Positions 7,296 to 21,042 of a stretch of DNA of 64,000 bases are shown here, piece by piece. This stretch comes from Chloroflexus aurantiacus J-10-fl (GTDB lineage Bacteria > Chloroflexota > Chloroflexia > Chloroflexales > Chloroflexaceae). The notes under the pieces are model-generated. The model made no database searches, was not told where the DNA came from, and saw only the letters and a program-made list of their open reading frames with translations. Position numbers and translations under genes: made by a program. The stretch covers positions 3,906,001 to 3,970,000 of the forward strand of contig NC_010175.1 in NCBI RefSeq assembly GCF_000018865.1. The letters run 5' to 3'. Every line of letters begins with the position of its first letter. Position 1 is the first letter of the stretch.

Positions 7296-8366
7296 TTACA
7301 GCACGTGCCACAGACGCGGGACAAAAATGCGGTTGAATGTATCGAGCGCATAGCGATCTGTCATCCCGGCGATATAATCAACCACCGCTCGTTCGATAGG
7401 CTCACCGCGTTGCTCGACAATAGTGCGTAGTTCAGCGGGAATCTCTTCGGGATGGCGGCTGAAATGCTGGTAAAGCGTTTCAATAATAAAGCGCACCTTC
7501 TCATCTTCGGCTTTGGCTTCAGGACGAAGATAGACGTGCTGATACAGAAACTCGCGCAACGTATTGGTTGCGGTCAAAATGGGCTGACTCATCGTCAGCA
7601 CAGGCGGATCAGGTGGCGACCCTTCGCCGGTGGCCCACCAGTTATGATAGATCAAATCGCTGACCATAGTCGCAATCCGTTTACTATGGCTGTCGCCCAG
7701 CACAGCCACGCATTCAGCCGGTAGGTCTTCGTTGCGCAGCAATCCGGCCCGGATCGCATCATCAATATCGTGATTGATGTAGGCCACGCTATCACACAGC
7801 TTAATAATCTGGCCTTCGAGGGTACTGGCGGTGCCCCAGGCAGTTGCCGTAATATCACGCCGGGCTTTGGAGTGGAAATGTATCCCCTCGCGCACAGCGA
7901 ACGTCAGATTGAGGCCGGCGCCATTCTGTTCGAGCACTTCAACAATGCGACGTGATTGCTCGTTGTGACGAAAATGACCGGGACAGATGCGGCTCAACGC
8001 CGTTTCGCCAGCGTGACCGAACGGAGCGTGACCAATGTCATGCCCCAGACCGATGGCTTCCGTCAAATCTTCGTTCAGCCGCAACGCACGGGCGACCGTT
8101 CGTGAAATCTGCGTCACCTCAAGCGTATGGGTTAGCCGGGTGCGGTAATGATCGCCGAGTGGTGCGATAAAGACCTGCGTTTTATGCTTAAGGCGCCGGA
8201 ATGGCTTGGAATGCAAAATCCGATCACGGTCGCGTTGGTATGCCGTGCGGATGGGGCATGGGGGTTCGGGAACATCGCGCACGGCATCAGCACTTCTGGC
8301 GGCATATGGCGAGAGGGTTTGGGCTTCGAGTGCCTCACGCATTTCGCGTATCGATGGGTACGACAT
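7296..8366 (-). CDS. dgt: dGTPase-like HD-domain triphosphohydrolase
   Basis: This 356-residue protein belongs to the dGTP triphosphohydrolase family, which removes tripolyphosphate from deoxynucleotides. Motifs of the metal-binding HD domain are clear: R-L-T-H-T-L-E-V, G-L-G-H-D-I-G-H-A-P-F-G-H and a later Y-I-N-H-D-I-D-D. The region 'HKTQVFIAPLGDHYRTRLTH' is typical of the bacterial short form. The ATG at 8366 is preceded by CGGAGC. It lies upstream of dnaG on the same strand, an arrangement that links nucleotide pool control with replication. The substrate may be broader than dGTP, as in many bacterial homologues. Confidence 0.9.
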   Translation of the reverse strand: MSYPSIREMREALEAQTLSPYAARSADAVRDVPEPPCPIRTAYQRDRDRILHSKPFRRLKHKTQVFIAPLGDHYRTRLTHTLEVTQISRTVARALRLNEDLTEAIGLGHDIGHAPFGHAGETALSRICPGHFRHNEQSRRIVEVLEQNGAGLNLTFAVREGIHFHSKARRDITATAWGTASTLEGQIIKLCDSVAYINHDIDDAIRAGLLRNEDLPAECVAVLGDSHSKRIATMVSDLIYHNWWATGEGSPPDPPVLTMSQPILTATNTLREFLYQHVYLRPEAKAEDEKVRFIIETLYQHFSRHPEEIPAELRTIVEQRGEPIERAVVDYIAGMTDRYALDTFNRIFVPRLWHVL

Positions 8367-9427
8367 GAGTTTGCTCCGTTGATACGGTATTTGCCTGACG
8401 TGCGTTTGAGTTAACAGGTGCGATCTGCTTTACTTTAACATACATTCGGTGGTAGTGGCGGGGAGGTGGCACAGTGAGGTGGTAGCCACCTGAAATCTGT
8501 TTCAACCATGCGCAACAGCAGGTAGGGCGAGGTGTGCTCCGTTCCCTGGTATCCTGCCGTGATCTGGGAGGATGATCGTCAGCCTGGGCAGTCATCGCTA
8601 TCCGCTTGATGCACTCTTTCCGTTATGCAAGGCACTATAAAGAAGATCATACCTGAGTGATTGATGCACAGTTACCATAGAACCGGTGACACTGCTGCTC
8701 GTGATATGGCCAATGCCGGGCGGACGTTGGCCGTGTATCCCTGATTGCGAATGTTTATGCTTGTACCGGCCGTTCTCGCATATAGCTGGCAAAGATCGCA
8801 AGCGCAGCAGGATCAAAATGCACTCTTTCGTGCCCGTCGGCATAACCTTGCAGGGCCGTTGCTACTACCGGGCGTTGTGCAACCATTTGTCAATCACTTT
8901 TTAGTACCAGGGATGGTGAAAAATCTTGTCCTATGACGGTACGGAACGGGTCTTCTCAGGCGTTGGTGATAGTGATAACACCAGCCATTACCAGGGCGCT
9001 GACGATTGCGCATCGTTGCATAGAAGTTGGAAAAGTGCCTTTTACACCTTTTCAACCGCCCGGCTTTGGTCACTCCCAGGATTGACAAACATATATCGAG
9101 GTTGTGTATTGACATAACTTTTCAACCTGGCGAGTGCTCGCTGTACTTATGTGTGGCTGTGCGTAGCATGATCTGCCATGAAAAGCAGCATCGGTTAGGT
9201 GCTATCTATCAGTTGGTGCTGTCCAATGCAGGACTATCACCCAGAGAATGATCAGGGTGATTAGCTATCTGAGGTTATTGTGTCAAGCGTCGCAATGCTT
9301 TGTCGTGGTGCATAGGTTGTACAGAGTATCAGCAACTGGTGGTTGGAGGCGATTTCATCCAGTGCCGTGCTTGCTGTTATGGATGACACCTGCTTATCAG
9401 CCCGAAAAACCTCCACAGATTTTACTA
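8367..9427. other. Non-coding or decayed stretch, about 1 kb
   Basis: No open frame here looks like a protein: candidates are short, lack ribosome-binding sites and show no recognisable motif. A weak hairpin AGGTGGC/GCCACCT lies at 8464-8491. The phrase GCACTCTTTC appears twice (about 8619 and 8821). The stretch separates divergent dgt from the exported propeller gene and may be decayed genes. Confidence 0.5.
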
Positions 9428-9462
9428 AGGGGTCAGCGAAGGCTTTGCCTTCACCGACCCCT
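9428..9462 (-). terminator. Hairpin after the exported propeller gene
   Basis: AGGGGTC-GCGAAGGC pairs with GCCTTC-GACCCCT around a TTT loop, with one internal mismatch. It lies 35 bases past the stop of the gene on the minus strand. The following bases are not T-rich, so termination is inferred from position only. Confidence 0.45.
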
Positions 9463-9497
9463 AGCAGTGTCATACGCGATCTGTACCTGCTACCCCC

Positions 9498-11519
9498 TCA
9501 CTCCGCATCCAACACCTGAATCTGGGTTGGCGTTGTGACAAAGATCGCCGGATCGCCCTGATACCAGGATATTTGCCCCATGATGGCAACCTGCTGGCCG
9601 ACGTGGTACATCTGCTCCGGCGGGACGCTGAATTGTGACCAGTACGCCTTGCGGATGATGGCTTTGAAGGTTCCCTGGTGGGGATTGCTGAAGCCGAGCA
9701 GCACCTGCTTGCCGTTGTTGACAACATACTGAAGCGTACCGGTGACCGTGGCCGTATGTCCTGCCCATTCGCGCGTGGCGGTATGTGGAATGACGATCTC
9801 TTCGTGGGTCACCGGGATGGTTTGGGGGGCGTCGGCAACAGTCGGCATCGGCGTATTGTTCCATCCACTCGTCGGATTCCCGGCGGTCAGCGCTACAATT
9901 GCGCCATCGGCGCTACGGAAATAGAGATTCTCGTTACTGACAACCCAGGTCGCGTATTCACTCCAGTACCTATCGTATACCGTACCCTGGTTGTAGTAAA
10001 TGTAGAAGCCGAAGTCGTAGGGCCGGGTGTTGTAGAGACCACTGGCGCAATAGTGGGAAGTGCTGAAAGAGCATGTGCCCGGGTTATCGTGCGAGGTGGC
10101 TACCGTGGGCAGGCGCTGGCTGGTGATCTTGTTGGTGAAACTACCGCGTGCGTCCGAGCGATCCAGGATGCGCAGGGCAAAGCCGGCCTCCCAATGCCCA
10201 CCGAAGAGAATATCTCCCGCCATCGAAACATTGGGCTGTTCGTCGGTGAGCAGGTACGGATTGGCCTCACCGGGCGGCCAGTCGAAGGCGATAAAGCGTA
10301 CATCACCACCGCTAAGCCCACTCACGGTCGTGTTATCCAGCACCATCTCGCCGAAGTGGGAGTCCCAGCGGGCGTCGTGGGCATGACGGGCGCGAATGAT
10401 AGTATAGACGACCTCTTTGCCGTTGGGTAACCGCTTGACAACGGGTTGTGGCCCCATCGGCATATAATCATTATCACCGTAGCCACCGTGACCAACATTA
10501 GCAATAAAAGGAACAGTTCCATCGTCCAGATCAAGCACGAAGAGCGCCTGATCACCTGGATTCTGGCTCAGCATCTGCCGCATGGCGCTATTGGTCTGCG
10601 GCCATTCGCGCCAGAGGGTGTGCCAGTCCAGTTGCACTTTCACCAAGACATACCCGCTGCCGTCGGCGATGACCGGCCAGCCGTACCGGTATCTGGTGGG
10701 GTCGGCGAAGGAACGACTCGCATGCACGGGGCGCACACGCCATTGCCGTCCACCGTCGCTGTTACGAATAGCGTGTACATACAGGTCTGGCTCGGTAGCG
10801 ACAATGACCAGACCGCGTGAAGGGGAGTAGGCGGGAGGCACGGCCACGGTCGCGCCGGCGTTGTAGACCCAAATTTGCTGCATCTTCTGCTTGTTGATTG
10901 CGTAGACCGAATTGCCCATCGCGAAGAGCACTCGATCAGGCAGAAGAGCTGGCGGCAACGATAGCGTGCTGCTCTGACCGGTGGCAAATTGACCCAGCAC
11001 CACCCCATCACTGGCACGCAGTTTGTAGAGGGTGCCATTGGCCGAGACGACAAAGACTGATTGGGTGTCGTGATCGTAAGCGACCGTCGAGTTGATAGTC
11101 CCAATGCCGCTGCGCTGCCAGAGTTGCTGCCCACTGCTTTCACTGAGGGCAAAGACGCCATCAGTGCCGGCAGCGATGTAGACCCGTCCACCGCCGGTTA
11201 CCGGCTGCACATTGCGCGGCAGCGAGCCGGTGCTGGTCACTTTGCGCACGCGACCATTGGCATCGACGCCATTCCAGATCCAGCGCAACCGCCAGGGCGG
11301 TGGCATAACCTGCGCGGTATAGCTGGTGTGCTGGGCATTGTGAGCGTGCTGACTCCACTCCCCGGAAGAGCTGCCGGTAGAACCTGGATTCATTACTAGT
11401 GGTATGTGTATCTGCGTTGGTGAACTTTGGGCGCTGAGGTACGGGAGATGTGCAGTTATTGTTCCACTTAGCGTCACCAGGGAGATGAGCAGGATGAGGG
11501 CACGAGTTGTGATGTTCAT
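9498..11519 (-). CDS. Exported PQQ-like beta-propeller protein
   Basis: The product is 673 residues from the ATG at 11519. That start gives a clean signal peptide (MNITTRALILLISLVTLSG, then a likely cleavage near A-x-A); an in-frame extension to 11711 encodes low-complexity sequence and is unlikely. The body has repeats of outer-membrane-assembly/PQQ-dehydrogenase propeller type ('GGRVYIAAGTDGVFALSESSGQQLW', 'YDHDTQSVFVVSANGTLYKLRASDGVVLGQF'). Residues for PQQ binding could not be assigned, so enzymatic activity is not claimed. It probably acts outside the membrane. It stands between a gene-poor stretch and the DISARM island. Confidence 0.75.
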   Translation of the reverse strand: MNITTRALILLISLVTLSGTITAHLPYLSAQSSPTQIHIPLVMNPGSTGSSSGEWSQHAHNAQHTSYTAQVMPPPWRLRWIWNGVDANGRVRKVTSTGSLPRNVQPVTGGGRVYIAAGTDGVFALSESSGQQLWQRSGIGTINSTVAYDHDTQSVFVVSANGTLYKLRASDGVVLGQFATGQSSTLSLPPALLPDRVLFAMGNSVYAINKQKMQQIWVYNAGATVAVPPAYSPSRGLVIVATEPDLYVHAIRNSDGGRQWRVRPVHASRSFADPTRYRYGWPVIADGSGYVLVKVQLDWHTLWREWPQTNSAMRQMLSQNPGDQALFVLDLDDGTVPFIANVGHGGYGDNDYMPMGPQPVVKRLPNGKEVVYTIIRARHAHDARWDSHFGEMVLDNTTVSGLSGGDVRFIAFDWPPGEANPYLLTDEQPNVSMAGDILFGGHWEAGFALRILDRSDARGSFTNKITSQRLPTVATSHDNPGTCSFSTSHYCASGLYNTRPYDFGFYIYYNQGTVYDRYWSEYATWVVSNENLYFRSADGAIVALTAGNPTSGWNNTPMPTVADAPQTIPVTHEEIVIPHTATREWAGHTATVTGTLQYVVNNGKQVLLGFSNPHQGTFKAIIRKAYWSQFSVPPEQMYHVGQQVAIMGQISWYQGDPAIFVTTPTQIQVLDAE

Positions 11520-11952
11520 AGCGGTGTTTCTAATCCTTTGTGGGTAAAGGTCTGAACATCGAGATTCTAAATTGTCATCGTGCAGGCACCGGCCGTTGCA
11601 ATGGTGTCGGCGCAGGCAATGTGATCGTATCATTGCGGGAAGAGGGGGGAAATAGGAAAAAAGGGCTAAGTGCGGTGTGGGAGTAGGGTGGTGATGTGGT
11701 AAGTGGGACATTGTGGTCGGAAGGGGTGGGAAGATATGCGAGCACGTTGCTGGATGGCTTGCTTCGGGCGATCAGGATGGAGTGCCTGTATTGTGGGTGA
11801 GTGCCCTGTTTATGCTGCCACTGTACTTCGTACCGGAAACGTTTGAAATATACCGAACGGCAGGTCACTGACAGAAGCGGTTTTAGGTGTCCGATTGACT
11901 CACACGATCAACCGGGCATCGCCTCTTTCTACAGGATGTCATGAGATGATAG
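11520..11952. other. Intergenic stretch between propeller gene and DISARM
   Basis: No convincing gene was seen. A purine-rich run (GGGAAGAGGGGGGAAATAGG, about 11637-11656) is the only notable feature. It must hold the promoter of the gene ending at 9498 and the end of the drmC transcript, but no clear -35/-10 pair was recognised. Confidence 0.45.
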
Positions 11953-12435
11953 TTAGATCCCTGCATGTCCAGTCAGTCTGTCAATTGCTACCCCAATTGT
12001 CGCTGCTTCCTGACCATCAATCAAAACAGCCATTTCATGGTTGAGAATCAGCCCGTTGTATGAAAGGTTTGAAGAACCAACCAGGGCACGTTTCCGGTCA
12101 ACTACCAGTACTTTAGCGTGCAGATCGCCGCGTTCGTTACCAGGGTTGAACGGATAGAGTTGAAAGTGGCGGTATTTCTTCTGTAACTCATTCAGGATGT
12201 GTTGAATTGATTCGTGTTGTTCAGGCAGACGATTGACAATCATGCGTACACGTACTCCCCGTAACAACGCTACTTCTAGCAGCTTGAAAATCCGATCAGT
12301 TTTGCCGATAGCATACGCTGTCAGCAGAATTTCATCCCGAGCTTCTTCCAGCAGCTCCTCAATTGCCGACTCTATTGAACCGATTCCACTTCCCATCCAT
12401 CCCAGACCACTGACAACAACCTGAATCTTGCTCAT
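11953..12435 (-). CDS. drmC: DrmC-like phospholipase D-fold protein (DISARM)
   Basis: This 160-residue protein has one phospholipase D catalytic signature, H-x-K-x4-D followed by G-S-S-N ('LHAKVLVVDRKRALVGSSNLS', about residues 107-127), in a compact PLD fold. DISARM loci typically encode such a protein beside DrmA and DrmB. The start overlaps the drmB stop by 4 bases (ATGA), so translation is coupled. With one motif per chain it would need to dimerise to form a nuclease or phosphodiesterase site. It is rather short for the family, but the motif and ends look intact. The family name rests on motif plus neighbours. Confidence 0.78.
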   Translation of the reverse strand: MSKIQVVVSGLGWMGSGIGSIESAIEELLEEARDEILLTAYAIGKTDRIFKLLEVALLRGVRVRMIVNRLPEQHESIQHILNELQKKYRHFQLYPFNPGNERGDLHAKVLVVDRKRALVGSSNLSYNGLILNHEMAVLIDGQEAATIGVAIDRLTGHAGI

Positions 12436-14264
12436 TGTAACCCTTCCAGAAGTAATTTACGGTCAAGCGACATATTCCGATGTTCACAGGAAGTTTCAGA
12501 CACCAGCGAGCAGGCATAACAGGCTGCACCATTGTAGCGATCCCTGCCAAACCTTTCCTCACCACAAAGTGGATCGTTCGAGCAGATGTCCAGTGTGCGC
12601 AGAGCACGTTCCAGGACTCGCTCGAATTCTGGTACCAGGGCAATCAATCCACCCAGTGTGCCATCTCCACCGGGTTGAGCAGTATACAGCAGGATGCCTC
12701 CGTTCGCCTGACCTGTTCGCTCATCCACGTCAAGAAAGATCCGTTCACGAATAGCGGCTGAGGAATAGCCCGAATCGACTGAAAGGGCATTGATCAATCG
12801 ATGTGCTAGAGTATGCCACCAGACGAAGGTGGGATGAAGCTGATGGCTGTCGCCGGCAAGCAAACTGTTTCCCAGGTATTCATCCGGGTTTTGCCACGCC
12901 TGCCACCATAACTGTGCCACGCAACCATCATCATCATTCAGAGCCGGCATGTTGTAAGGTTTGGTCTTTAGATCAAGGTCAATGAAAATCCCTTCGCCGG
13001 AGAGTTCTGCTCCGATGTACCAGCGACGACCAGGGGTAGAAGATAATTCAAAAACGGTGTCAACAGTTTGCGCTCCTGCTGACTGACCGGCCGGAATGCG
13101 CCGATAACCTCGCTGCACCATTACGACCCGTAAGCGACTGACGGGGGTGACGCGAAAGTGCAGCCGGTTCCATACTACATTACGACGTACCTGACTGAGC
13201 TGCACCTCAAAATTAGGCACTTCACCAGGGCGTTTCGGCGGTGCAGGGGGATGTCCACGCTCTGCCGCCTGGAGCAAAGCATGAAATTCATCCCGACGAA
13301 ATTCATATGGTGTTTTGGAAATTGCCAGCCCGAGAATGTCTCCAATAGCGCTGAAGATCTCTTCTTCAGAATAAGATTCGATCTGGCGAAGTATTTCTGG
13401 TTCCAGTTTTTGACGATTGACCAGACTTTCCAGCGTTCTGATAAACTCCTGCTTACTCCCAAATGGACGGGTCTCATGCATTAACACGATGGCGTAAATA
13501 TCGCTGATTTGTAACAGGCGATGCAGGCTGGTGTCGCACCGTGGTATAACCAGTGCAGAGACAATTTCGGGGATGCGCAAATTGGCAGCTCCGCGCTGAA
13601 TGATACGGGATTCGTACTGGCAGCCGGGACGGAATGCGCCGCCTCCTTCTGGCTCCTTTTCCGGGAAGCGCCCAGAACAGGGCCAGGGCTGGCTGTATGC
13701 GACGCCTAGATTGATCTTCCCCTTGCAATCGGGACATTCGACCGTGATATTTTTCAATGCACCACTGCCATGCCATAACAGAAAAGAGGGAGAGCAGTTT
13801 TCCTGTGTGTGTGTGATAATTCCTATCCAGTCAACATCGTCCAGATGTCCGGCGGGACATGCCCGTACAAAGCGAATGGCCTGCCGGCTGGCAATTCGCC
13901 ATGCTTCCCATTTGTTCTTCGCTCGGGGACACCGGGGACAGATTCGATCGTCGTCCTGTGTTTTTCGGTAAAGAATGTTATGGATCGGGCACAGTGACCA
14001 TGCGGGAAACCTTTTTGTTTTATACAACGCTTTAGTTTCTGGCTTGCCCAGTTCCGCGTTGGAAGGCAGTCGCAAAATCCCTGCCCCTCCCAGCAAGCCC
14101 TGAGAAAGACGTTGATCGGTGATTTCAAAGCGTGTCGGGTTATCTATATCTGAAAAGACATCAGAGAGTTCTGTTGAAAGGATGATACGCGGGCCGTTAA
14201 TCCCTTCCAGGATTGCGCCGGGTCCGTATGTGGTCAAAAACTGAGAACGGCGAATTTGTGGCAT
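12432..14264 (-). CDS. drmB: DrmB-like DUF1998 protein (DISARM)
   Basis: The product has 610 residues. The N-terminus 'RRSQFLTTYGPGAI' and the C-terminal DUF1998 block are characteristic: 'GGILLYTAQPGGDGTLGGLI' and a cysteine-rich tail with C-x5-C, C-x2-C and S-C-E-H-R-N ('GAACYACSLVSETSCEHRN'), probably binding zinc. An N-terminal C-x2-H...C-x2-C pair is also visible. DrmB forms a complex with the helicase DrmA in known DISARM systems. It begins 3 bases after the drmA stop and overlaps drmC by 4 bases, so drmA-drmB-drmC is one operon. Confidence 0.85.
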   Translation of the reverse strand: MPQIRRSQFLTTYGPGAILEGINGPRIILSTELSDVFSDIDNPTRFEITDQRLSQGLLGGAGILRLPSNAELGKPETKALYKTKRFPAWSLCPIHNILYRKTQDDDRICPRCPRAKNKWEAWRIASRQAIRFVRACPAGHLDDVDWIGIITHTQENCSPSFLLWHGSGALKNITVECPDCKGKINLGVAYSQPWPCSGRFPEKEPEGGGAFRPGCQYESRIIQRGAANLRIPEIVSALVIPRCDTSLHRLLQISDIYAIVLMHETRPFGSKQEFIRTLESLVNRQKLEPEILRQIESYSEEEIFSAIGDILGLAISKTPYEFRRDEFHALLQAAERGHPPAPPKRPGEVPNFEVQLSQVRRNVVWNRLHFRVTPVSRLRVVMVQRGYRRIPAGQSAGAQTVDTVFELSSTPGRRWYIGAELSGEGIFIDLDLKTKPYNMPALNDDDGCVAQLWWQAWQNPDEYLGNSLLAGDSHQLHPTFVWWHTLAHRLINALSVDSGYSSAAIRERIFLDVDERTGQANGGILLYTAQPGGDGTLGGLIALVPEFERVLERALRTLDICSNDPLCGEERFGRDRYNGAACYACSLVSETSCEHRNMSLDRKLLLEGLQ

Positions 14265-14267
14265 GGC

Positions 14268-17200
14268 TTAATCCTCGAACATGGTTGTTTCTTCAATATC
14301 GCGCAAAGATTGAGGGGCATTCTCAAAAGCAACTTCAAACCGTCCCAGATGTTGTGAGTCGCCAAGAACAACATGGCGTCGTGGTGCCCGAATCACAGCC
14401 GGTTCACTGTAAACGAATTCGTCTGGATCGGAGTGTTGTTCGGCAATCATTCGCCAGCGGTCGAGTTCTGAATTTGCTTCCCGTTCAGTGTCCCCAGGCG
14501 CAGGTCGGCGGCCTGATGGCTGATTTTGCGCACGTTCTTCAAATAGACCTGGAATAGTTTTGACCTCTGGAGCATAGCGTTTGTCTCGCATATGGTGTGC
14601 GCCTGAGAAAAATTTGCTGCTGATACGCTGTTCCACGCGCCATAGTTCATCCAGATCAACCCCGCCAATCTGACGTGCCAGACGCAGGAGAATGACAGCT
14701 ACCGGTCCCAGGGCACGTTCGCGGGCCCGTGGCGAGAAAGGGGCAACTGTAACCGGCTCGACATGCCGGTACAGACCACGATGGTAGCCCGTAAAAAATT
14801 CATAGTGATCGAGGTCACGTGGACGGGTGGCGCGAAAGGAGGTAATCACCAGGCCACAGGTTCTGCGTCCTACCCGTCCAGTCGCCTGGATGTATGCGGA
14901 GGTTGTTTTGGGCTGACCGTGTACTACCATCAGGCTCAGCCGATCAACATCCACTCCGGTTCCAAACATCGATGTCGCAAAAACAGCATCCGGTGTGGAC
15001 GGTGAAGGTAGTGCAGTTTCCAGTCTGCGCAGCAGATTAGGTAATTCGGTCGACTTCGAGCGGCTGGAGAGTTCCACACGCTGATATTCATCCAGATTTC
15101 GGCGATTGGAAGACCGATGCTTCAGCCATTCAGGGATGTCTTGCCGGTAAAGAGAGAGAGTACCTGCTAGTTCACGCAAGGCGTTAAAGTATCCCACCAG
15201 CGTCCAGAATGGATCCAGCTCATTATCGGGTCTTCCATTGAGGCGCAAATCTTCGGCACACTGCAAGAGAGCCGACCAGATGCGCACAATTGGTGTTTGC
15301 GCACCTTTGCCCGGAGCACAGACACCAACGTATAACCGCCCCGGTCGAGTGGCGTCAAGCGGATGCGTTTCCCCAGTAACAGCGAAAAATCTATCATCGG
15401 CGGAGAGTGCCGGGGGTGGGAATTGCGCCAGTGAACGGTTGAACAGTGCTTTAACCTGGGGATCAGCCCGACGGACAGTGGCGGTGGAAGCGATGTATTT
15501 AGGGCGCACCACGCTACCATTCACTACACGCTGACAGAGATAGTCTACCGCTGTCTCGTAAATCCCCACCATGCTACCCAGTGGACCTTCGATGAGATGC
15601 AGTTCGTCTTGCAAAATCAGGTCGGGCGGTGCGAAAGGCTCGACCTGTACGCAGGCGTCTTCTGGCGAGGGGTGCCGGAAATAGCCCACCCTGTTCGATT
15701 TTGGTAATGTAGCAAGATGATCGGCGGGATTGCCCTGACGATAATAACCGTAACGGGCATGATAATGAGTGACATTACCAAACAATGCCGCTGCTTCTCC
15801 TTCGTATGCCAGACGGGCAAACTTATCTACCGTTGAAATGACCAGCGATGGACAGCGAGCATAGATCTGATCATCAACAGTAAAAGCGGGAACAGGGATG
15901 GCTCGTGAACGTTTTTGGTACCCTGCTTCCCGGAAAGGCTCTGGAATATCTTGCCAGTCCATGTCATCGGAGAGTGGTAATCCAGACTCACGTTGTGCTG
16001 CAAGCCTCAGGTTGACCTGCCCTCTCCATTGAACCGTCCTGCTCTCGCGTGGTAGCGGTACCTGTTCTGCCCAGGCATGCTGGTTCAATTCACAGTCGGG
16101 ATTAGGACAGAAGATTTCAAAGTCGATATCTTTAGATGAATTTCTCTGAGTTGTAACACTGATGATGTAATAACCCGGACGTGATGGACGGGCAGCCTGA
16201 AATGCTGCATTTGCGCCAAGGAGTGGCTGGAGCATATTCCAGACATAGGTATCCACTTCCTCAGCTTTCCATTGTTCCTGTGGTTCAATGCGTATCTGTA
16301 GAACCAGCGTGCTGCAGGTGTTGACGAAGTGTCGGATACGGACATTCTCGATCTTAACCTTTGGTTTGGGATGCCGGATATTGATTGGTGCAGTTGGAGG
16401 CAGATTCATGCCAGTCAGGTACAGTGTATGAGACCCTTCACCCAAACCCTCTTCCGGCACCGCCAGCAGCGCACCGCAGACCGGGCATTGAGTGACCTGA
16501 GCCGGTTCACCTTGGGATACATATGATGCATTCTTTTGGTTCTGACGTATGCCTTTCAAAATATCAAGTGCGCCAGGAATGTAAGAATAGGAATTGCCTG
16601 CATTTGTAAAACCAAATCCGCGTAGTTGATTGGGGGTGACGCCGCCACCGACCCAAAGACCGGCAGAGAAACGCACGCCGCCCCAGAGAAAATCGTCTTT
16701 GTGCAGACATGCCTGTGGTCGCCAGCCGGCCGGTTGGTTATCCTTCAGTCCCCAGACACGCAGGATTTCGCAGGCGGTAATGACCCCCAAAGCACGACGA
16801 AACTGCTGGATGGTAAGCAGACGTAACGTGTAACGCGAGAGCACCGCCACTCCACCACCGGTGGTGTCTCCCTGCCGGTTCCTGCGGGCGACAAGACGGC
16901 GCAGGCCGAGAAGAAAAGCTGTCAGACCCAGATAGGCTTCGGTTTTGCCGCCACCGGTGGGGAACCATAACAGGTCACAGGTTTCGCGGTCAGGACGCAG
17001 TGGATTGACCAGTGGGGGAATGTTCAGCATGATAAACGCCAGTTGAAACGGGCGCCAGGTAAATTGTCCACCGGTCTGTCCGCGATGTTTCCAGCCTGCC
17101 TGCATGGCAATGGCTTTGTTCGCAAAGCAGAACGCCAGGCGTGCGTCTTCATTTGTACAGAGCACGTCAATCGCTTCCTGAATCCTGGTCGCGGTACGTT

Positions 17201-18311
17201 GACACTCTTCCAGATTGCGCTGCGCAGCCATCTGAAAGTTACCATCAAGAGTTGGAACAGCACGTTCCTGTTCTGTGATCCAGGCACGATAACCGTTTAC
17301 CAGTGGTTGGAGAGCAGCGCGTAACGCTTCTGGTTGCCACGTTTCGGCCAGAACTTCAGCACGGAGTTCCGGGGACGGGCCATAACTGGTGTTCCATGAA
17401 ATATCTGGAGATTGAACCAGATATATTGGGACAAGTTCGGTACGCACGTCGGCGGGCGAGAATTTTGCCCGTTCGGTCTCCGGCACAATCTCTGCGTCCG
17501 TCCATGCAAAAGGCGCTTCCGCTGGACGTTCAAAGGCGGTAGACTTTTCCGGGTCAATCTCCTTCCAGATCGCCGCACACATGTGACCACGGGCCAGGGC
17601 GGTGCGATGCCGATACTGTAAAGCCAGCGACTCTTCTTCGCGGGTTTCTTCAGCCAGCAGCGTGGATTCTGTTTCAGCTATCTGTACCGGGATCAGATGT
17701 GTACCGGCCGACAGATGAACCCGAATTTGCGGCTGAAAGAGATAATCTTCTGTTTGCGGACGTGATTCTTCTGGCACGATACGCTCATTGACCAGGAAAA
17801 TACTGATGCGGTAACTGTCCTCTACACGACGAGAGCGAACCAGTAAACGGATGTCTTTATCTGGCATGAAGGACTGACTATCAAGGGTGGCATTCACCGG
17901 TCCGCTGAGATACATCTCCGGCTTGCGTTCATACTCTTTGTCGGTATTGCGCAGATAACGTGCCCAGGTGATACAAATTTCGATATACGGATCACCCTGT
18001 GCTGCCTTCACCGTGAAGCTTAGCCCGATAGAACGAGGCAATGCCCGTGGGTCGAGAGCAGGCGAGAACATGCCTGTCGCTGCCACAAAGCCCTGATTAT
18101 CCTGATCTTCTTCACTGGAGGTTTCTTCAATGACCTGATCTACCTGGTCTTCGATACGTTCGTCCTGCGAGCGGGCATTACGCGGCTCCAGCACACCGGT
18201 AATGTATTCCTGGCGCGGGTCCTCGTCTTGCGGCAGGATTTCGTACCGTCCATTGCGGGGTCCCAGGATTTCACGAACCAGCGCAGTCAGTAGTTCATCG
18301 CGAATGTTCAT
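14268..18311 (-). CDS. drmA: DrmA-like superfamily 2 helicase (DISARM)
   Basis: This very large helicase (1347 residues) is the DISARM core protein. Walker A is 'FPTGGGKTEAYLGL' with Lys456. The DExH box is D902-E-L-H ('LILQDELHLIEGPLG'). Motif VI is 'YIQATGRVGR', preceded by 'VFATSMFGTGVDVDRLSLMVVHGQP'. A possible zinc pair occurs mid-protein ('CPVCGALLAV'). In characterised systems DrmA with DrmB binds and blocks incoming unmethylated phage DNA. The gene is first in the drmABC operon, with a 12-bp palindrome 22 bases upstream of its start. A long separate N-terminal region has no motif I recognise. Confidence 0.85.
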   Translation of the reverse strand: MNIRDELLTALVREILGPRNGRYEILPQDEDPRQEYITGVLEPRNARSQDERIEDQVDQVIEETSSEEDQDNQGFVAATGMFSPALDPRALPRSIGLSFTVKAAQGDPYIEICITWARYLRNTDKEYERKPEMYLSGPVNATLDSQSFMPDKDIRLLVRSRRVEDSYRISIFLVNERIVPEESRPQTEDYLFQPQIRVHLSAGTHLIPVQIAETESTLLAEETREEESLALQYRHRTALARGHMCAAIWKEIDPEKSTAFERPAEAPFAWTDAEIVPETERAKFSPADVRTELVPIYLVQSPDISWNTSYGPSPELRAEVLAETWQPEALRAALQPLVNGYRAWITEQERAVPTLDGNFQMAAQRNLEECQRTATRIQEAIDVLCTNEDARLAFCFANKAIAMQAGWKHRGQTGGQFTWRPFQLAFIMLNIPPLVNPLRPDRETCDLLWFPTGGGKTEAYLGLTAFLLGLRRLVARRNRQGDTTGGGVAVLSRYTLRLLTIQQFRRALGVITACEILRVWGLKDNQPAGWRPQACLHKDDFLWGGVRFSAGLWVGGGVTPNQLRGFGFTNAGNSYSYIPGALDILKGIRQNQKNASYVSQGEPAQVTQCPVCGALLAVPEEGLGEGSHTLYLTGMNLPPTAPINIRHPKPKVKIENVRIRHFVNTCSTLVLQIRIEPQEQWKAEEVDTYVWNMLQPLLGANAAFQAARPSRPGYYIISVTTQRNSSKDIDFEIFCPNPDCELNQHAWAEQVPLPRESRTVQWRGQVNLRLAAQRESGLPLSDDMDWQDIPEPFREAGYQKRSRAIPVPAFTVDDQIYARCPSLVISTVDKFARLAYEGEAAALFGNVTHYHARYGYYRQGNPADHLATLPKSNRVGYFRHPSPEDACVQVEPFAPPDLILQDELHLIEGPLGSMVGIYETAVDYLCQRVVNGSVVRPKYIASTATVRRADPQVKALFNRSLAQFPPPALSADDRFFAVTGETHPLDATRPGRLYVGVCAPGKGAQTPIVRIWSALLQCAEDLRLNGRPDNELDPFWTLVGYFNALRELAGTLSLYRQDIPEWLKHRSSNRRNLDEYQRVELSSRSKSTELPNLLRRLETALPSPSTPDAVFATSMFGTGVDVDRLSLMVVHGQPKTTSAYIQATGRVGRRTCGLVITSFRATRPRDLDHYEFFTGYHRGLYRHVEPVTVAPFSPRARERALGPVAVILLRLARQIGGVDLDELWRVEQRISSKFFSGAHHMRDKRYAPEVKTIPGLFEERAQNQPSGRRPAPGDTEREANSELDRWRMIAEQHSDPDEFVYSEPAVIRAPRRHVVLGDSQHLGRFEVAFENAPQSLRDIEETTMFED

Positions 18312-18704
18312 AGTTCCTCGCGGATCAGACGTTCTGTATACAGACCGATAAATGGTACCTGGAAGTCATAACCTGTCGGGTTGTGCAGGGAAGGTTTTAA
18401 CCGTTCTTTCTGCACCAGTCAGCGGGTAACTGCCTAATGATCGGCATTCAACGGCACGCACGAAGGCGTTAGCATGTAACATAGCAGTTCATGACTGCTC
18501 TCGTCAAGATTCTGAGTCCAGATTTCGCGGAAGTATTCCTGACCACGCTCAAATACAATCGGGAGGTGCTCTGCACGTCTTCACGACATAACTGTTTCTT
18601 TTTCATGGTCTGCTCCAGCTATTCTGTTCGCCCCACGAACAGATGCAGATCGGTAATTTTGGGTCCGACAACAAATGGACAGACGGTCAGATCGTGAGCG
18701 GATG
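18312..18704. other. Gap inside the DISARM island; possible drmA control region
   Basis: The 393 bases between drmA and the glycosylase gene hold no convincing gene. In class 2 DISARM loci an additional gene, drmE, is expected nearby; none is seen here. The gap presumably carries the drmA promoter, though no strong -35/-10 pair was recognised on the minus strand. Confidence 0.5.
18333..18344. promoter_or_regulatory. 12-bp palindrome upstream of drmA
   Basis: TCTGTATACAGA is a perfect palindrome 22 bases before the drmA start codon. It could be an operator for a dimeric repressor. No matching regulator gene is adjacent, so the role is inferred from position and symmetry only. Confidence 0.35.
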
Positions 18705-19388
18705 TCACGCCGTGGACTCCTGTGTTGCGAAGGTACACCAGGTGTTGAGCGGGCATTGGGCGCAGAGCGGTTGCCGGCGCGTCAGGCAAACCAGGTGCGC
18801 CAGATCGAGCAGGGCGTAGTTGAACATTCGTGGCTGTTCATGGTCGAGGAGCGAAGCAAGTGCGTGCCGAAAGCGTGCGCTGCGTCGGGATGAGTCTCTG
18901 ACCGGCCAGCCCAGCAGTCGTCCGGTAATGCGCACGGTATTGGTGTCAAGTAGAACCTCTGGCTCGTTCCAGGCAAAGCAACGTACAGCACTGGCAATGT
19001 AATCACTGATACCGGGAAGGGAGAGCAAATCCTCTTTGCGGCGTGGAACGTTGCCGTGGTAGCGAGTGGCAATTGCCTGAAGCATCTCGTAGAACAACCG
19101 GGATCGCCAGGTTAACCCCAGTGAACCGAGCATTTGATAGATGTCACCCTGAGATGCCTGTGAGAGCGATGTGAGATCAGGATAGCGGGCCAGGAAGGCT
19201 TCATATACCGGCACAACCTGCTTTACCTGTGTCCGATGTAGCAAAATCTCTGCCAGTAAGATATGGTATGGGTCCGTCGTTTGCCGCCACGGAAATGAGC
19301 GTACATGCTCAGCCCCCCATTGGTGTAACGCTACACGCAGGGCCTGTACCTCATCGGAGCTGAATGGAAGCAGCGTATCGTTGGTCAT
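18705..19388 (-). CDS. MIG/MutY-like base-excision glycosylase, probably T:G-specific
   Basis: The 227-residue protein is a helix-hairpin-helix GPD glycosylase. Its N-terminal 'SFPWRQTTDPYHILLAEILLHRT' and C-terminal 'FNYALLDLAHLVC' closely resemble, as I recall it, the thymine glycosylase Mig of Methanothermobacter, whose gene lies beside a cytosine methyltransferase. The hairpin reads L-P-G-I-S-D-Y, with Tyr where endonuclease III has Lys, and the catalytic Asp is in 'LLDTNTVR'. A 4Fe-4S loop reads C-x7-C-x2-C-x5-C, one residue longer than the usual first spacing. The start overlaps the methyltransferase stop by 4 bases. Inferred role: repair of T:G mismatches from deaminated 5-methylcytosine. 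A MutY-like A:G activity is the alternative. Confidence 0.78.
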   Translation of the reverse strand: MTNDTLLPFSSDEVQALRVALHQWGAEHVRSFPWRQTTDPYHILLAEILLHRTQVKQVVPVYEAFLARYPDLTSLSQASQGDIYQMLGSLGLTWRSRLFYEMLQAIATRYHGNVPRRKEDLLSLPGISDYIASAVRCFAWNEPEVLLDTNTVRITGRLLGWPVRDSSRRSARFRHALASLLDHEQPRMFNYALLDLAHLVCLTRRQPLCAQCPLNTWCTFATQESTA

Positions 19389-20353
19389 GTATCAGCAATC
19401 AGCGTCTGAACGATAGCCTGCATCACTGGCGGACACACGGCGTTTCCCAACATCTTAATCTGTTCTCTGCGGTTACCGTGATTAATGACAAATTCCGGCG
19501 GAAACCCCATCGCTTTTTTCAATTCAGGCGGCTGAAGCATTCGCATCTCATGGCCGCCACGACCGTCCGGGCGCACCAGTGCAAAGCGGTCCAGGGTTGT
19601 AATGGTGCGCAGTGGTGTGTCAAGTGACTGCCAGCCACCAGCTTTGTCCGAACCGTAATACACGAGCAAAAAGGGTGTATCCCTGCCCAGAACATCGATA
19701 GCGTTCTGTGCTCTTACCAGCGTGCGGGCAGCCCGGTTTGCAGTTACCAGTGGTGTATAACGATAGGAGCCATTGAGGTTTATCGCATACGATGCTGGAA
19801 GTGGTTCATAACGACAGGGCACAACTGCGCGTGGTTCACGATCACGGTCGAAGAGCAGATACAGGCGACGGCGTCTTTGCGGCACACCGAATGCACTGGC
19901 AACCAGCATCTGCTCCAAAACACGATAACCACTACGCTGCATGATCTCAAGAAAATGTCTGTAGTGTTCCCATAAACGAAAAGCGGGAACATTTTCAACC
20001 ACTACCCATCGTGGTTGAAACACTTCTGCAAACCGCCAGACATTCCAGGAAAGGCGAAGGCTGGCCTTGTCTTTCGGACTCGCGCCTCGTGCCACGCTGT
20101 GGCTGGTACACTCCGGTGAAGCAAGAATAAGATCAACGTGACCAATTGTTTCGTGAAAGTGGTGAATCTGCCTTCGTGACAGGATGGCAAGATCAACGTT
20201 GTAAAATCGTGCTTCCGGGAAGTTATCCTGAAATACCTGTCCGGCGAGTGCCCATTTGTCGAAACCGGCAGCGATGTCGATCCCTGCCGCTCGCGCACCG
20301 CAGGAATTACCACCAATACCACAAAATAGATCGATAGCTCGAATGGTATTCAT
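19385..20353 (-). CDS. DNA (cytosine-5) methyltransferase, DISARM-associated (DrmMII-like)
   Basis: The 322-residue enzyme has the ordered C5-methyltransferase motifs. Motif I is 'DLFCGIGGNSCGARAAG' at the N-terminus. Motif IV carries the catalytic Cys in 'ASPECTSHS' (Pro-Glu-Cys instead of Pro-Pro-Cys). Motif VI is 'VVENVPAF', motif VIII is 'PQRRRRLYLL', and motif X is 'MLGNAVCPPV'. It transfers methyl from S-adenosylmethionine to cytosine; the recognition sequence cannot be read from the gene. It heads the minus-strand island and is coupled to the glycosylase gene. Its likely task is protecting host sites from the DrmABC machinery. No matching restriction endonuclease gene is adjacent. Confidence 0.9.
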   Translation of the reverse strand: MNTIRAIDLFCGIGGNSCGARAAGIDIAAGFDKWALAGQVFQDNFPEARFYNVDLAILSRRQIHHFHETIGHVDLILASPECTSHSVARGASPKDKASLRLSWNVWRFAEVFQPRWVVVENVPAFRLWEHYRHFLEIMQRSGYRVLEQMLVASAFGVPQRRRRLYLLFDRDREPRAVVPCRYEPLPASYAINLNGSYRYTPLVTANRAARTLVRAQNAIDVLGRDTPFLLVYYGSDKAGGWQSLDTPLRTITTLDRFALVRPDGRGGHEMRMLQPPELKKAMGFPPEFVINHGNRREQIKMLGNAVCPPVMQAIVQTLIADT

Positions 20354-20421
20354 GCCTGATTTCTCTGATCCTGCAACAGCAGGATCATATTGTATACGAA
20401 GAGTGGGCTATTCGCCACATT

Positions 20422-21042
20422 TCAGCTACTTCCCCGCTCCCGCTCGCGTTGTGCCCGCAGCTCTGTCGAAGAAATATCCCGGCGGAAGAGGTCTTCGGGG
20501 ATGGGGGTGAAGAGCTGTTCGTAGCCTGCCGGTAGTTGCAGATCGGCGAGGGTGTAGAAGCGCCCGTTGATCTGGCGCCCGGCGACGAAGAAGCGGCATC
20601 CGGCTGCGGCCAGTTCGGCGAAGGCGGCGAACATTGCCGCTTCGTCGCCGTAGTAGCGAGGGGTTACGAGGCGCAGGGCGGTGTCGTAGCCGAGGACGAA
20701 TGCCCGACCGGGGTAGAGGCGGGCTTTCTGGACGAAGAGGGGGGCGGCGGCGAGGATGACGTGGTGGCGGTGCTGGAATTGGGCGATCCGACGTTCAATC
20801 TCTTCAAGCGCGAGTTCGCCTTTGTCGGCGTTTCGGACTGTTAGCTCGAAGTGGACTGGTTTTCCGGTCATGATGACTACGGCCCGTTGCATGCCGAGAT
20901 GACCAGCGTGCAATGGGTTGAAGCTGCCGGGTAGGATGGCCCCCGGCGGCGGATCGTCGATCCGCCGCTCACCAGTGGGGGTGATGGTGATTGATCCGAC
21001 TCGACCACTCAGGATGTCGCTTAATTCGGCGGCATTGATCAT
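20422..21042 (-). CDS. Cytidylyltransferase-fold (NMN/nicotinate adenylyltransferase-like) protein
   Basis: The 206-residue protein has the nucleotidyltransferase signature G-S-F-N-P-L-H-A-G-H ('LPGSFNPLHAGHLGM', about residues 37-51) and the C-terminal I-S-S-T-x-x-R motif ('ISSTELRAQRER'). Together they define the NadD/NadM/CoaD-like fold that transfers AMP or CMP to a phosphorylated substrate. The N-terminal 36 residues are an extension absent from short NadD proteins. The substrate is not certain, so no gene symbol is given. The start overlaps the smc stop by 4 bases, so it is translated from the smc transcript. Confidence 0.75.
   Translation of the reverse strand: MINAAELSDILSGRVGSITITPTGERRIDDPPPGAILPGSFNPLHAGHLGMQRAVVIMTGKPVHFELTVRNADKGELALEEIERRIAQFQHRHHVILAAAPLFVQKARLYPGRAFVLGYDTALRLVTPRYYGDEAAMFAAFAELAAAGCRFFVAGRQINGRFYTLADLQLPAGYEQLFTPIPEDLFRRDISSTELRAQRERERGSS

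What the first reader, a model, noticed from the sequence alone, without database searches (positions are those of the whole stretch)
11953..20353. DISARM-type island whose cytosine methyltransferase is coupled to a MIG-like thymine glycosylase
The sequence shows drmA, drmB and drmC in one minus-strand operon, and upstream a C5-methyltransferase overlapping by 4 bases a glycosylase gene whose hairpin has Tyr in the Lys position (L-P-G-I-S-D-Y) and an Asp in 'LLDTNTVR'. From family knowledge, Mig-type glycosylases repair T:G mismatches and one is encoded beside a cytosine methyltransferase in a thermophilic archaeon. Inference: in a thermophile, self-marking by 5-methylcytosine is mutagenic, so the defence island carries its own repair enzyme. 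This would be a glycosylase-bearing DISARM variant.
Basis: partly seen in the sequence, partly recalled or inferred. Interest (0 to 1): 0.78.

Follow-up and report, generated by a model that had tools for sequence, protein, structure and literature searches.

The report
DISARM defence with built-in mismatch repair
A bacterial anti-virus gene cluster that marks its own DNA by cytosine methylation also carries a DNA-repair enzyme that probably mends the mutations this mark causes, and related clusters repeat the pairing with one of two unrelated kinds of repair enzyme.

Summary
On the minus strand, 20353-11953 encodes a C5 methyltransferase (DrmMII), a 227-aa HhH-GPD glycosylase overlapping it by 4 bp, and DrmA, DrmB and DrmC, inside a 12-kb stretch missing from six of six same-genus genomes. 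Other residues and a tree put the enzyme outside MutY, on the side that holds Mig. The linkage recurs in Chloroflexota, once as a methyltransferase-glycosylase fusion behind DrmB. Of 66 DrmA-DrmB loci, 12 of 17 with a C5 methyltransferase have a glycosylase or the unrelated Vsr, against 2 of 49 without (p=1e-7). A fourth locus of the window's DrmA type has Vsr instead. But 16 of 40 non-DISARM C5 methyltransferases of the phylum also have such a partner: the coupling belongs to C5 methylation and DISARM shares it; only the glycosylase share looks higher in DISARM. Thermophile enrichment is unproven. Most likely function: T:G repair after deamination of DrmMII's 5-methylcytosine; activity untested. 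New variant of a known kind.

The parts
19385..20353 (-). drmMII-type C5 cytosine methyltransferase, 322 aa; motifs SPEC (IV), ENV (VI), QRRRR (VIII), GNAV (X)
   Evidence: only C5 MTase of its genome at E<=1e-30
18705..19388 (-). HhH-GPD glycosylase of the Mig side, 227 aa, no C-terminal MutY domain; Glu47, Tyr130, Asp148 and four Cys (201, 209, 212, 218), all invariant in the 11-row alignment
19385..19388 (-). 4-bp overlap of methyltransferase end and glycosylase start
18312..18704 (-). 393-bp spacer between glycosylase and drmA
14268..18311 (-). drmA, SF2 helicase of the long DrmAL type, 1347 aa
12432..14264 (-). drmB (MZB domain), 610 aa
11953..12435 (-). short drmC, single PLD domain, 160 aa
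8382..20448 (.). about 12-kb stretch that holds the island and is missing from six of six same-genus genomes, where its flanks (dGTPase-like gene at left, NadD-like gene at right) are neighbours
   Evidence: G+C 0.535 against 0.604 (left) and 0.562 (right)

Best explanation
This is a DISARM anti-phage operon of the drmMII kind in which the self-marking cytosine methyltransferase has its own mismatch-repair partner. DrmMII puts 5-methylcytosine on the host genome, which by the published model damps DrmAB on self DNA. 5-methylcytosine deaminates to thymine and leaves a T:G mismatch that uracil glycosylase does not remove. The overlapping HhH-GPD gene, on the Mig side of the family, makes a glycosylase that excises that thymine, and host base-excision repair restores C, so that both the genome and the self-mark are kept. 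Shown here: gene order, family, residues, recurrence, replacement by Vsr, fusions, and the statistical tie to C5 MTases. Inferred: the T:G activity, its preference for DrmMII sites, and the benefit to self-recognition.
For: (1) Phylogeny: 11 MutY rows form one side of a branch (100/99); the window enzyme, the 14 other C5-linked glycosylases kept in that tree and 1kea Mig are on the other side. (2) Residues discussed for thymine recognition in PMC2714593 (passages): the window has Phe at Mig F27, Arg at R30, Arg at R47, Tyr at Y126; E. coli MutY Gln182 is Tyr here. (3) 227 aa, so no room for the C-terminal 8-oxoG domain, while the genome has a longer MutY of its own, L002. (4) Recurrence: the same family near DrmA/DrmB in L005, L065, L067, L093, L095, and fused to the C5 MTase behind DrmB in L061. 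(5) Replacement: the fourth DrmAL locus, L064, has C5 MTase plus Vsr, and L118 has a C5-Vsr fusion beside DrmA/DrmB. (6) Repair genes at 12 of 17 DrmA-DrmB loci with a C5 MTase against 2 of 49 without, p=9.6e-8; 11 of 17 against 1 of 49, p=1.2e-7, if both Nth-like genes (L120, L082) are not counted. (7) The only C5 MTase of the genome at E<=1e-30 is this one.
Against: The best solved-structure hit of the window protein is MutY (126 bits), ahead of Mig 1kea (112.5 bits). At the Mig A50 position it has Val, the MutY residue, and at L187 Tyr, found in neither, so its specificity could differ from T:G. The residue markers are not clean: L061 has Gln at 187, and L104 and L108, outside the MutY clade, have Gln47. 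The tree is unrooted, does not join the window enzyme to 1kea specifically, and four long rows were dropped. 5 of 17 C5-bearing loci have no repair partner, and L045 has Vsr without a recognised C5 MTase. Vsr-type domains are also predicted nucleases fused to DrmA-like helicases in ARMADA systems (PMC12458937, passages), so a Vsr near DISARM need not be a repair enzyme. 393 bp separate glycosylase and drmA in the window.
Confidence: 0.7

Rival explanations
1. The glycosylase is a defence effector: it excises bases from incoming phage DNA (as Brig enzymes do) or acts as a restriction glycosylase, and DrmAB processes the resulting abasic or nicked DNA.
For: Glycosylases as anti-phage effectors are known: Brig3 in PMC13160076 (abstract and passages) and restriction glycosylases in PMC10273834 (passages). 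The gene sits inside a defence operon. Vsr-type domains serve as predicted nucleases in the related ARMADA systems (PMC12458937, passages).
Against: It goes with C5 MTases, not with DrmA/DrmB as such: among the 49 loci without a C5 MTase the one HhH-GPD hit, L082, is Nth-like and 3.4 kb away. Brig3 appears to be of the uracil-glycosylase superfamily (passages), another fold family.
Confidence: 0.11
2. It is a MutY-like adenine glycosylase (or one of broad specificity) picked up by chance with the island.
For: mutY model 157 bits, MutY first among solved structures; Val at the A50 position.
Against: Lacks the Gln47 found in 11 of 11 MutY rows and the Gln182 of E. coli MutY, and is too short for the C-terminal domain; outside the MutY clade (100/99); linkage recurs in diverged loci and as a fusion.
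Confidence: 0.08
3. It is a T:G repair partner, but of the methyltransferase cassette rather than of DISARM: MTase plus glycosylase travel between DISARM, paraMORC-like restriction systems and plasmids, and nothing about it is special to DISARM. (This differs from the best explanation only in emphasis.)
For: 16 of 40 non-DISARM C5 MTases of Chloroflexota have such a partner, and by the same 3-kb rule the excess in DISARM is marginal: 9 of 12 against 16 of 40, p=0.049, or 8 of 11, p=0.088, with one locus per genus. Related MTase-glycosylase pairs stand beside different DrmA types and, in L006, beside a GHKL ATPase and a receiver protein.
Against: The window and L005 have a different MTase (at most 34% identity to the others) with a glycosylase 50-63% identical to the others, so the pair is not always inherited as a unit. 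The glycosylase share is higher in DISARM: 6 of 12 against 2 of 40, p=0.001 (a comparison chosen after seeing the data).
Confidence: 0.11

Closest known systems
Class 2 DISARM (drmMII type)
   Same: drmA, drmB, drmC and a C5 methyltransferase in one operon; PADLOC already holds a DrmMII profile matched over its full length by this MTase
   Different: none of the five island proteins is DrmE; carries a glycosylase gene that is not in the list of components seen in PMC9142583 (passages)
Mig.MthI, T/G mismatch glycosylase of Methanobacterium thermoautotrophicum (1kea); that it lies beside a C5 methyltransferase gene is recalled
   Same: HhH-GPD with four conserved Cys, Phe27/Arg30/Arg47/Tyr126 equivalents, no C-terminal domain
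   Different: Val for Ala50, Tyr for Leu187; stands in a DISARM operon
Vsr endonucleases of C5 restriction-modification systems (PMC8011034 and PMC2292703, passages)
   Same: companions of C5 MTases, also fused to them (L118 by Pfam; L185 and L188 by own profiles)
   Different: unrelated fold and chemistry (strand nick, not base excision; recalled)
MutY (A/G adenine glycosylase)
   Same: closest by plain score to solved structures
   Different: separate clade, other substrate residues, longer protein

Membership tests
DISARM | DrmA helicase over the family cut-off | tested here: met
   NF038326 1828.7 bits, cut-off 999
DISARM | DrmB over the family cut-off | tested here: met
   NF038324 475 bits, cut-off 240
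DISARM | DrmC PLD protein | tested here: met
   PADLOC PDLC02614 190 bits nearly full length; NCBIfam NF038319 97 bits, below its 133 cut-off
DISARM | DNA methyltransferase of DrmMI or DrmMII type | tested here: met
   PDLC02654 783.6 bits
DISARM class 2 | DrmE (class definition recalled) | tested here: inconclusive
   the five island proteins were scanned and none is DrmE; the rest of window and genome were not scanned for it
DISARM | anti-phage activity | not testable with these tools
   needs a phage assay
Mig thymine glycosylase | outside the MutY clade, on the side of 1kea | tested here: met
   100/99; unrooted, after dropping 4 long rows
Mig thymine glycosylase | Phe27, Arg30, Arg47, Tyr126 equivalents | tested here: met
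   Arg30 and Tyr126 are shared with most MutY rows
Mig thymine glycosylase | Ala50 and Leu187 equivalents | tested here: not met
   Val and Tyr; hence called Mig-like, not Mig
Mig thymine glycosylase | T:G activity | not testable with these tools
   needs an assay
MutY | curated NCBIfam score | tested here: not met
   157 bits against 286.5
MutY | Gln at E. coli position 182 and C-terminal domain | tested here: not met
   Tyr; 227 aa only
Nth/endonuclease III | catalytic Lys in the hairpin | tested here: not met
   Tyr130

The most novel reading that the evidence does not exclude
DISARM couples base excision directly to immunity: the glycosylase (or Vsr) is recruited by DrmA/DrmB, so that excision or nicking intermediates at mismatched or unmarked sites help decide where DrmAB loads, and the enzyme is both guardian of the self-mark and part of the attack.
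Probability: 0.08. Interest if true: 0.85.

Novelty: new variant of a known kind. Interest (0 to 1): 0.57.

Why it matters
Every defence system that marks self with 5-methylcytosine pays in C-to-T mutations and in lost marks. That Vsr accompanies C5 restriction systems is in print (PMC8011034, PMC2292703; passages). That DISARM carries such enzymes, of two unrelated kinds and even fused to its methyltransferase, was not found in the listings and passages seen (limits under literature in the full report). If true, it makes the mutational cost of DISARM measurable: delete the repair gene and count mutations at the methylated motif. It also warns against calling short glycosylase genes beside C5 methyltransferases 'MutY'.

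Tried and rejected
Tyr at the Lys position as a Mig marker: rejected, the genome's own MutY and B. stearothermophilus MutY have it. PADLOC label 'Type II nicking endonuclease' (PDLC03398) for the glycosylase: not diagnostic, the genome's own MutY scores higher (128.7 against 106.4 bits). Thermophile enrichment: 16S was found in 7 of 13 and 23S in 6 of 12 genomes asked. 23S G+C: glycosylase-bearing DISARM genomes 0.632 (own), 0.589 (G165), 0.573 (G071, Nth-like fusion); Vsr-bearing 0.536 (G005), 0.547 (G004), 0.596 (G319). 16S: 0.62 own (centre of the locus), 0.65 G222, 0.60 G165 (part), against 0.54 G005; G367, with glycosylase but no DrmA in the stretch, 0.55. Overlapping and too few; left open.

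AlphaFold model of the glycosylase from three sequences: mean pLDDT 52, not used. Viral contigs: 56 pattern matches, no relative. Boundary repeats: the 20 largest direct and 25 longest inverted repeats listed for 8000-21000 are short and imperfect; no target-site duplication was identified. The first tree, with Nth-like rows, had a weak backbone; rows L004, L120, L082 and L011 were dropped.

Rows left out of the 66-locus count: window and L005 (given, or found through the glycosylase), and 7 of 73 fetched loci without both DrmA and DrmB in the stretch (L057, L115, L116, L121, L123, L124, L127). Weaker DrmA-model matches (generic helicases) were not fetched. Plasmid loci: 13 of 85 matching records were fetched, chosen by me for spread from the 30 listed. 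C5 control: 40 loci, about every second entry of the hit list after known DISARM ones were taken out; the non-DISARM pairs L096 and L103 were not drawn. The control used a 3-kb distance from the MTase, the DISARM count a 6-kb distance from DrmA/DrmB; by the control's rule L119 fails.
Full report
What is there. DrmA, DrmB, DrmC and DrmMII are confirmed by profile. The glycosylase matches the mutY model at 157 bits, well below its 286.5 cut-off, endonuclease III at 60.6 bits, and HhH-GPD of Pfam at 25.3 bits, just below its cut-off. The genome, of 5,258,541 bases (recalled as the size of Chloroflexus aurantiacus J-10-fl; no call names it), also has a longer MutY (L002, 40% identity) and two weaker HhH-GPD matches. 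The DISARM methyltransferase is its only C5 methyltransferase at E<=1e-30.

Origin. In six of six same-genus genomes of the sample the NadD-like gene right of the island is directly followed by the dGTPase-like gene that lies left of it in the window, so window 8382-20448, about 12 kb, is present only here. No genus tree was made, so gain here and loss in the others are both possible; the lower G+C (0.535 against 0.604 to the left and 0.562 to the right) speaks for gain. One same-genus genome, G052, has elsewhere a 76-codon ORF that matches only the start of DrmA.

What the glycosylase is. PMC2714593 (passages) discusses the residues that set Mig apart from MutY and notes that the Tyr is also found in a MutY that does not excise thymine. 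In one search the window enzyme has the Mig residues at F27, R30, R47 and Y126, the MutY residue at A50 (Val) and a third one at L187 (Tyr). In the same table 11 of 11 MutY rows have Gln47, 10 of 11 Leu27 (L109 has Phe) and 10 of 11 Gln or Glu at 187 (L111 has His). The C5-linked rows other than the Nth-like L120 have Phe or Tyr at 27 and Arg or Lys at 47; L061 has Gln at 187. The tree of 32 rows separates the 11 MutY proteins from the other 21 with 100/99 support; these hold 15 C5-linked proteins, the window's included, 1kea and five others. Four long rows were dropped for that tree. Within its side the window enzyme forms a supported clade with L005, L065, L093 and L006, but is not joined to 1kea. 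By plain score its best solved structure is a MutY. I therefore call it Mig-like.

Recurrence. A scan of genome contigs with the glycosylase gave three relatives, of which the third, L007, is a MutY. L005, an Anaerolineaceae MAG, has the same gene order from the C-terminal part of the MTase to DrmC. L006 has MTase, glycosylase, a GHKL ATPase and a receiver protein, which resembles the paraMORC and response-regulator restriction systems of PMC8011034 (passages). Among 400 Chloroflexota genomes three DrmA pass the DrmAL cut-off: own, G005 and G100; L005 is a fourth. G100 (L065) has the glycosylase with another type of C5 MTase, which PADLOC also calls DrmMII (408 bits); G005 (L064) has C5 MTase and Vsr instead. 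A search of 400 Chloroflexota genomes with the L065 glycosylase shows six matches of 194 bits or more (the query's own gene and the window's among them), then 160 and less. Five of the six lie within 4 kb of DrmA or DrmB; the sixth, G367, is the L006 locus again. In L093 the gene between glycosylase and DrmA matches DrmE over its C-terminal part (82.8 bits, residues 634-856 of 870), so a class 2 DISARM with DrmE also has the glycosylase.

Fusions. L061 has C5 MTase and HhH-GPD in one 644-aa frame directly behind DrmB (Pfam HhH-GPD 22.9 bits, below its cut-off; own profile 169 bits). L120 has HhH-GPD and C5 MTase in one 685-aa frame, but its glycosylase half is Nth-like with Lys at the Tyr position. 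L118 has C5 MTase and Vsr in one 580-aa frame beside DrmA and DrmB; the gene between is a homologue of the DrmE of L093 (107 bits), although PADLOC did not recognise it at E<=1e-10.

Count. 73 loci were fetched through DrmA (53 Chloroflexota, 7 Pseudomonadota out of 299 genomes, 13 plasmids); 66 had both DrmA and DrmB in the stretch (47, 7 and 12). With a C5 MTase within 6 kb: 17, of which 12 have a repair gene (glycosylase in L061, L065, L067, L093, L095, L120; Vsr in L064, L074, L090, L118, L119, L125) and 5 do not (L060, L063, L087, L092, L131). Without: 49, of which 2 have one (L045 Vsr; L082 an Nth-like gene 3.4 kb off). Fisher p=9.6e-8. With the two Nth-like genes, L120 and L082, not counted: 11 of 17 against 1 of 49, p=1.2e-7. 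With L082 not counted and L095 dropped (same genus as L067): 11 of 16 against 1 of 49, p=5.4e-8; of these, with at least 2 kb visible on both sides: 9 of 14 against 1 of 40, p=3.4e-6; Chloroflexota alone: 9 of 11 against 1 of 35, p=4.7e-7. The profiles were built from these same loci, related loci are not fully independent, and neighbours cut off by contig ends are missed.

Control. 40 non-DISARM C5 MTases of Chloroflexota: 16 have a repair gene within 3 kb, 14 Vsr and 2 glycosylase (L182 Mig-like; L175 a fusion with an Nth-like half). So the tie is to C5 methylation, not to DISARM. By that same rule DISARM C5 loci of the phylum reach 9 of 12, p=0.049, or 8 of 11, p=0.088, with one per genus: no clear excess. 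The share of glycosylase is higher (6 of 12 against 2 of 40, p=0.001; Mig-like only and one per genus 4 of 11 against 1 of 40, p=0.006), but these comparisons were chosen after seeing the data, and two more non-DISARM pairs, L096 and L103, were seen outside the drawn 40.

Cassette. The MTases of window and L005 are 61% identical to each other (L005 is partial) and at most 34% to those of L065, L093, L006, L067 and L095, which share 49-82%; the glycosylases share 39-80%, and the window's 50-63% with the others. So MTase and glycosylase can be re-paired. Mig-like genes beside C5 MTases also occur on plasmids of Caldicellulosiruptor, Thermus and haloarchaea.

Mechanism. PMC9142583 (passages) reports that 5-methylcytosine lowers DrmAB ATPase and proposes that methylation spares self DNA. 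From established chemistry, 5-methylcytosine deaminates to thymine. A T:G-specific enzyme next to the MTase would mend this. Vsr in the same place is the strongest hint, since the known common substrate of Mig and Vsr is the T:G mismatch; but PMC12458937 (passages) predicts Vsr-type domains as nucleases fused to DrmA-like helicases in ARMADA, so Vsr need not mean repair. Not shown: activity, motif, benefit.

Literature. Searches for DISARM, DrmA, DrmMII and DrmE with glycosylase, Vsr and related terms gave no paper that describes a glycosylase or Vsr as a DISARM component in what I saw. Limits: one search listed 20 of 54 papers; passages were read in PMC10273834, PMC12458937, PMC8011034, PMC2292703, PMC9142583, PMC2714593, PMC12707154, PMC13160076 (with abstract) and PMC4081073, the rest only as listings; the founding DISARM paper was not held and supplements were not available. 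This is no proof of absence.

Noticed in passing
L120:4874-6931 and L175:4886-6841: C5 methyltransferase fused behind an Nth-like HhH-GPD domain with Lys in the hairpin (LPGLGVKSA, LPGIGPKSA); L175 has no DrmA or DrmB in the stretch fetched. Could be bifunctional enzymes with AP lyase.
   Followed up: partly
L118:10748-12490, L185:4107-5720, L188:1149-2798: C5 methyltransferase fused to Vsr in single frames, with DrmA/DrmB nearby (L118) and without (L185, L188, by own profiles).
   Followed up: partly
L006:8774-13968 and L010, L012: C5 methyltransferase, Mig-like glycosylase and an ATP-binding protein (GHKL in L006) together in an Anaerolineales MAG and on haloarchaeal plasmids.
   Followed up: partly
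L066:1765-1995 (G052): 76-codon ORF that matches only the start of DrmA in a same-genus genome, behind an AAA-domain gene; perhaps a relic of another DISARM.
   Followed up: no
window:19385-20353, L197, L198: Methyltransferase motif IV reads SPEC (window, L197) or SPVC (L198) instead of PPC as in L064, L065 and L067; L197 lies beside a gene annotated as MZA anti-phage protein MzaE.
   Followed up: partly
L008:9950-10633 (Gloeothece plasmid): Mig-like glycosylase with no annotated C5 methyltransferase in the 20.6-kb stretch; the plasmid gene table is incomplete.
   Followed up: no
window:27333-30131: 932-aa ORF that by eye looks like a papain-type peptidase joined to a caspase-like (CHAT) region.
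   Followed up: no
window:4783-5363: Short repeated units (LLFSRSYFLAPIFS) in overlapping ORFs, probably a DNA repeat.
   Followed up: no
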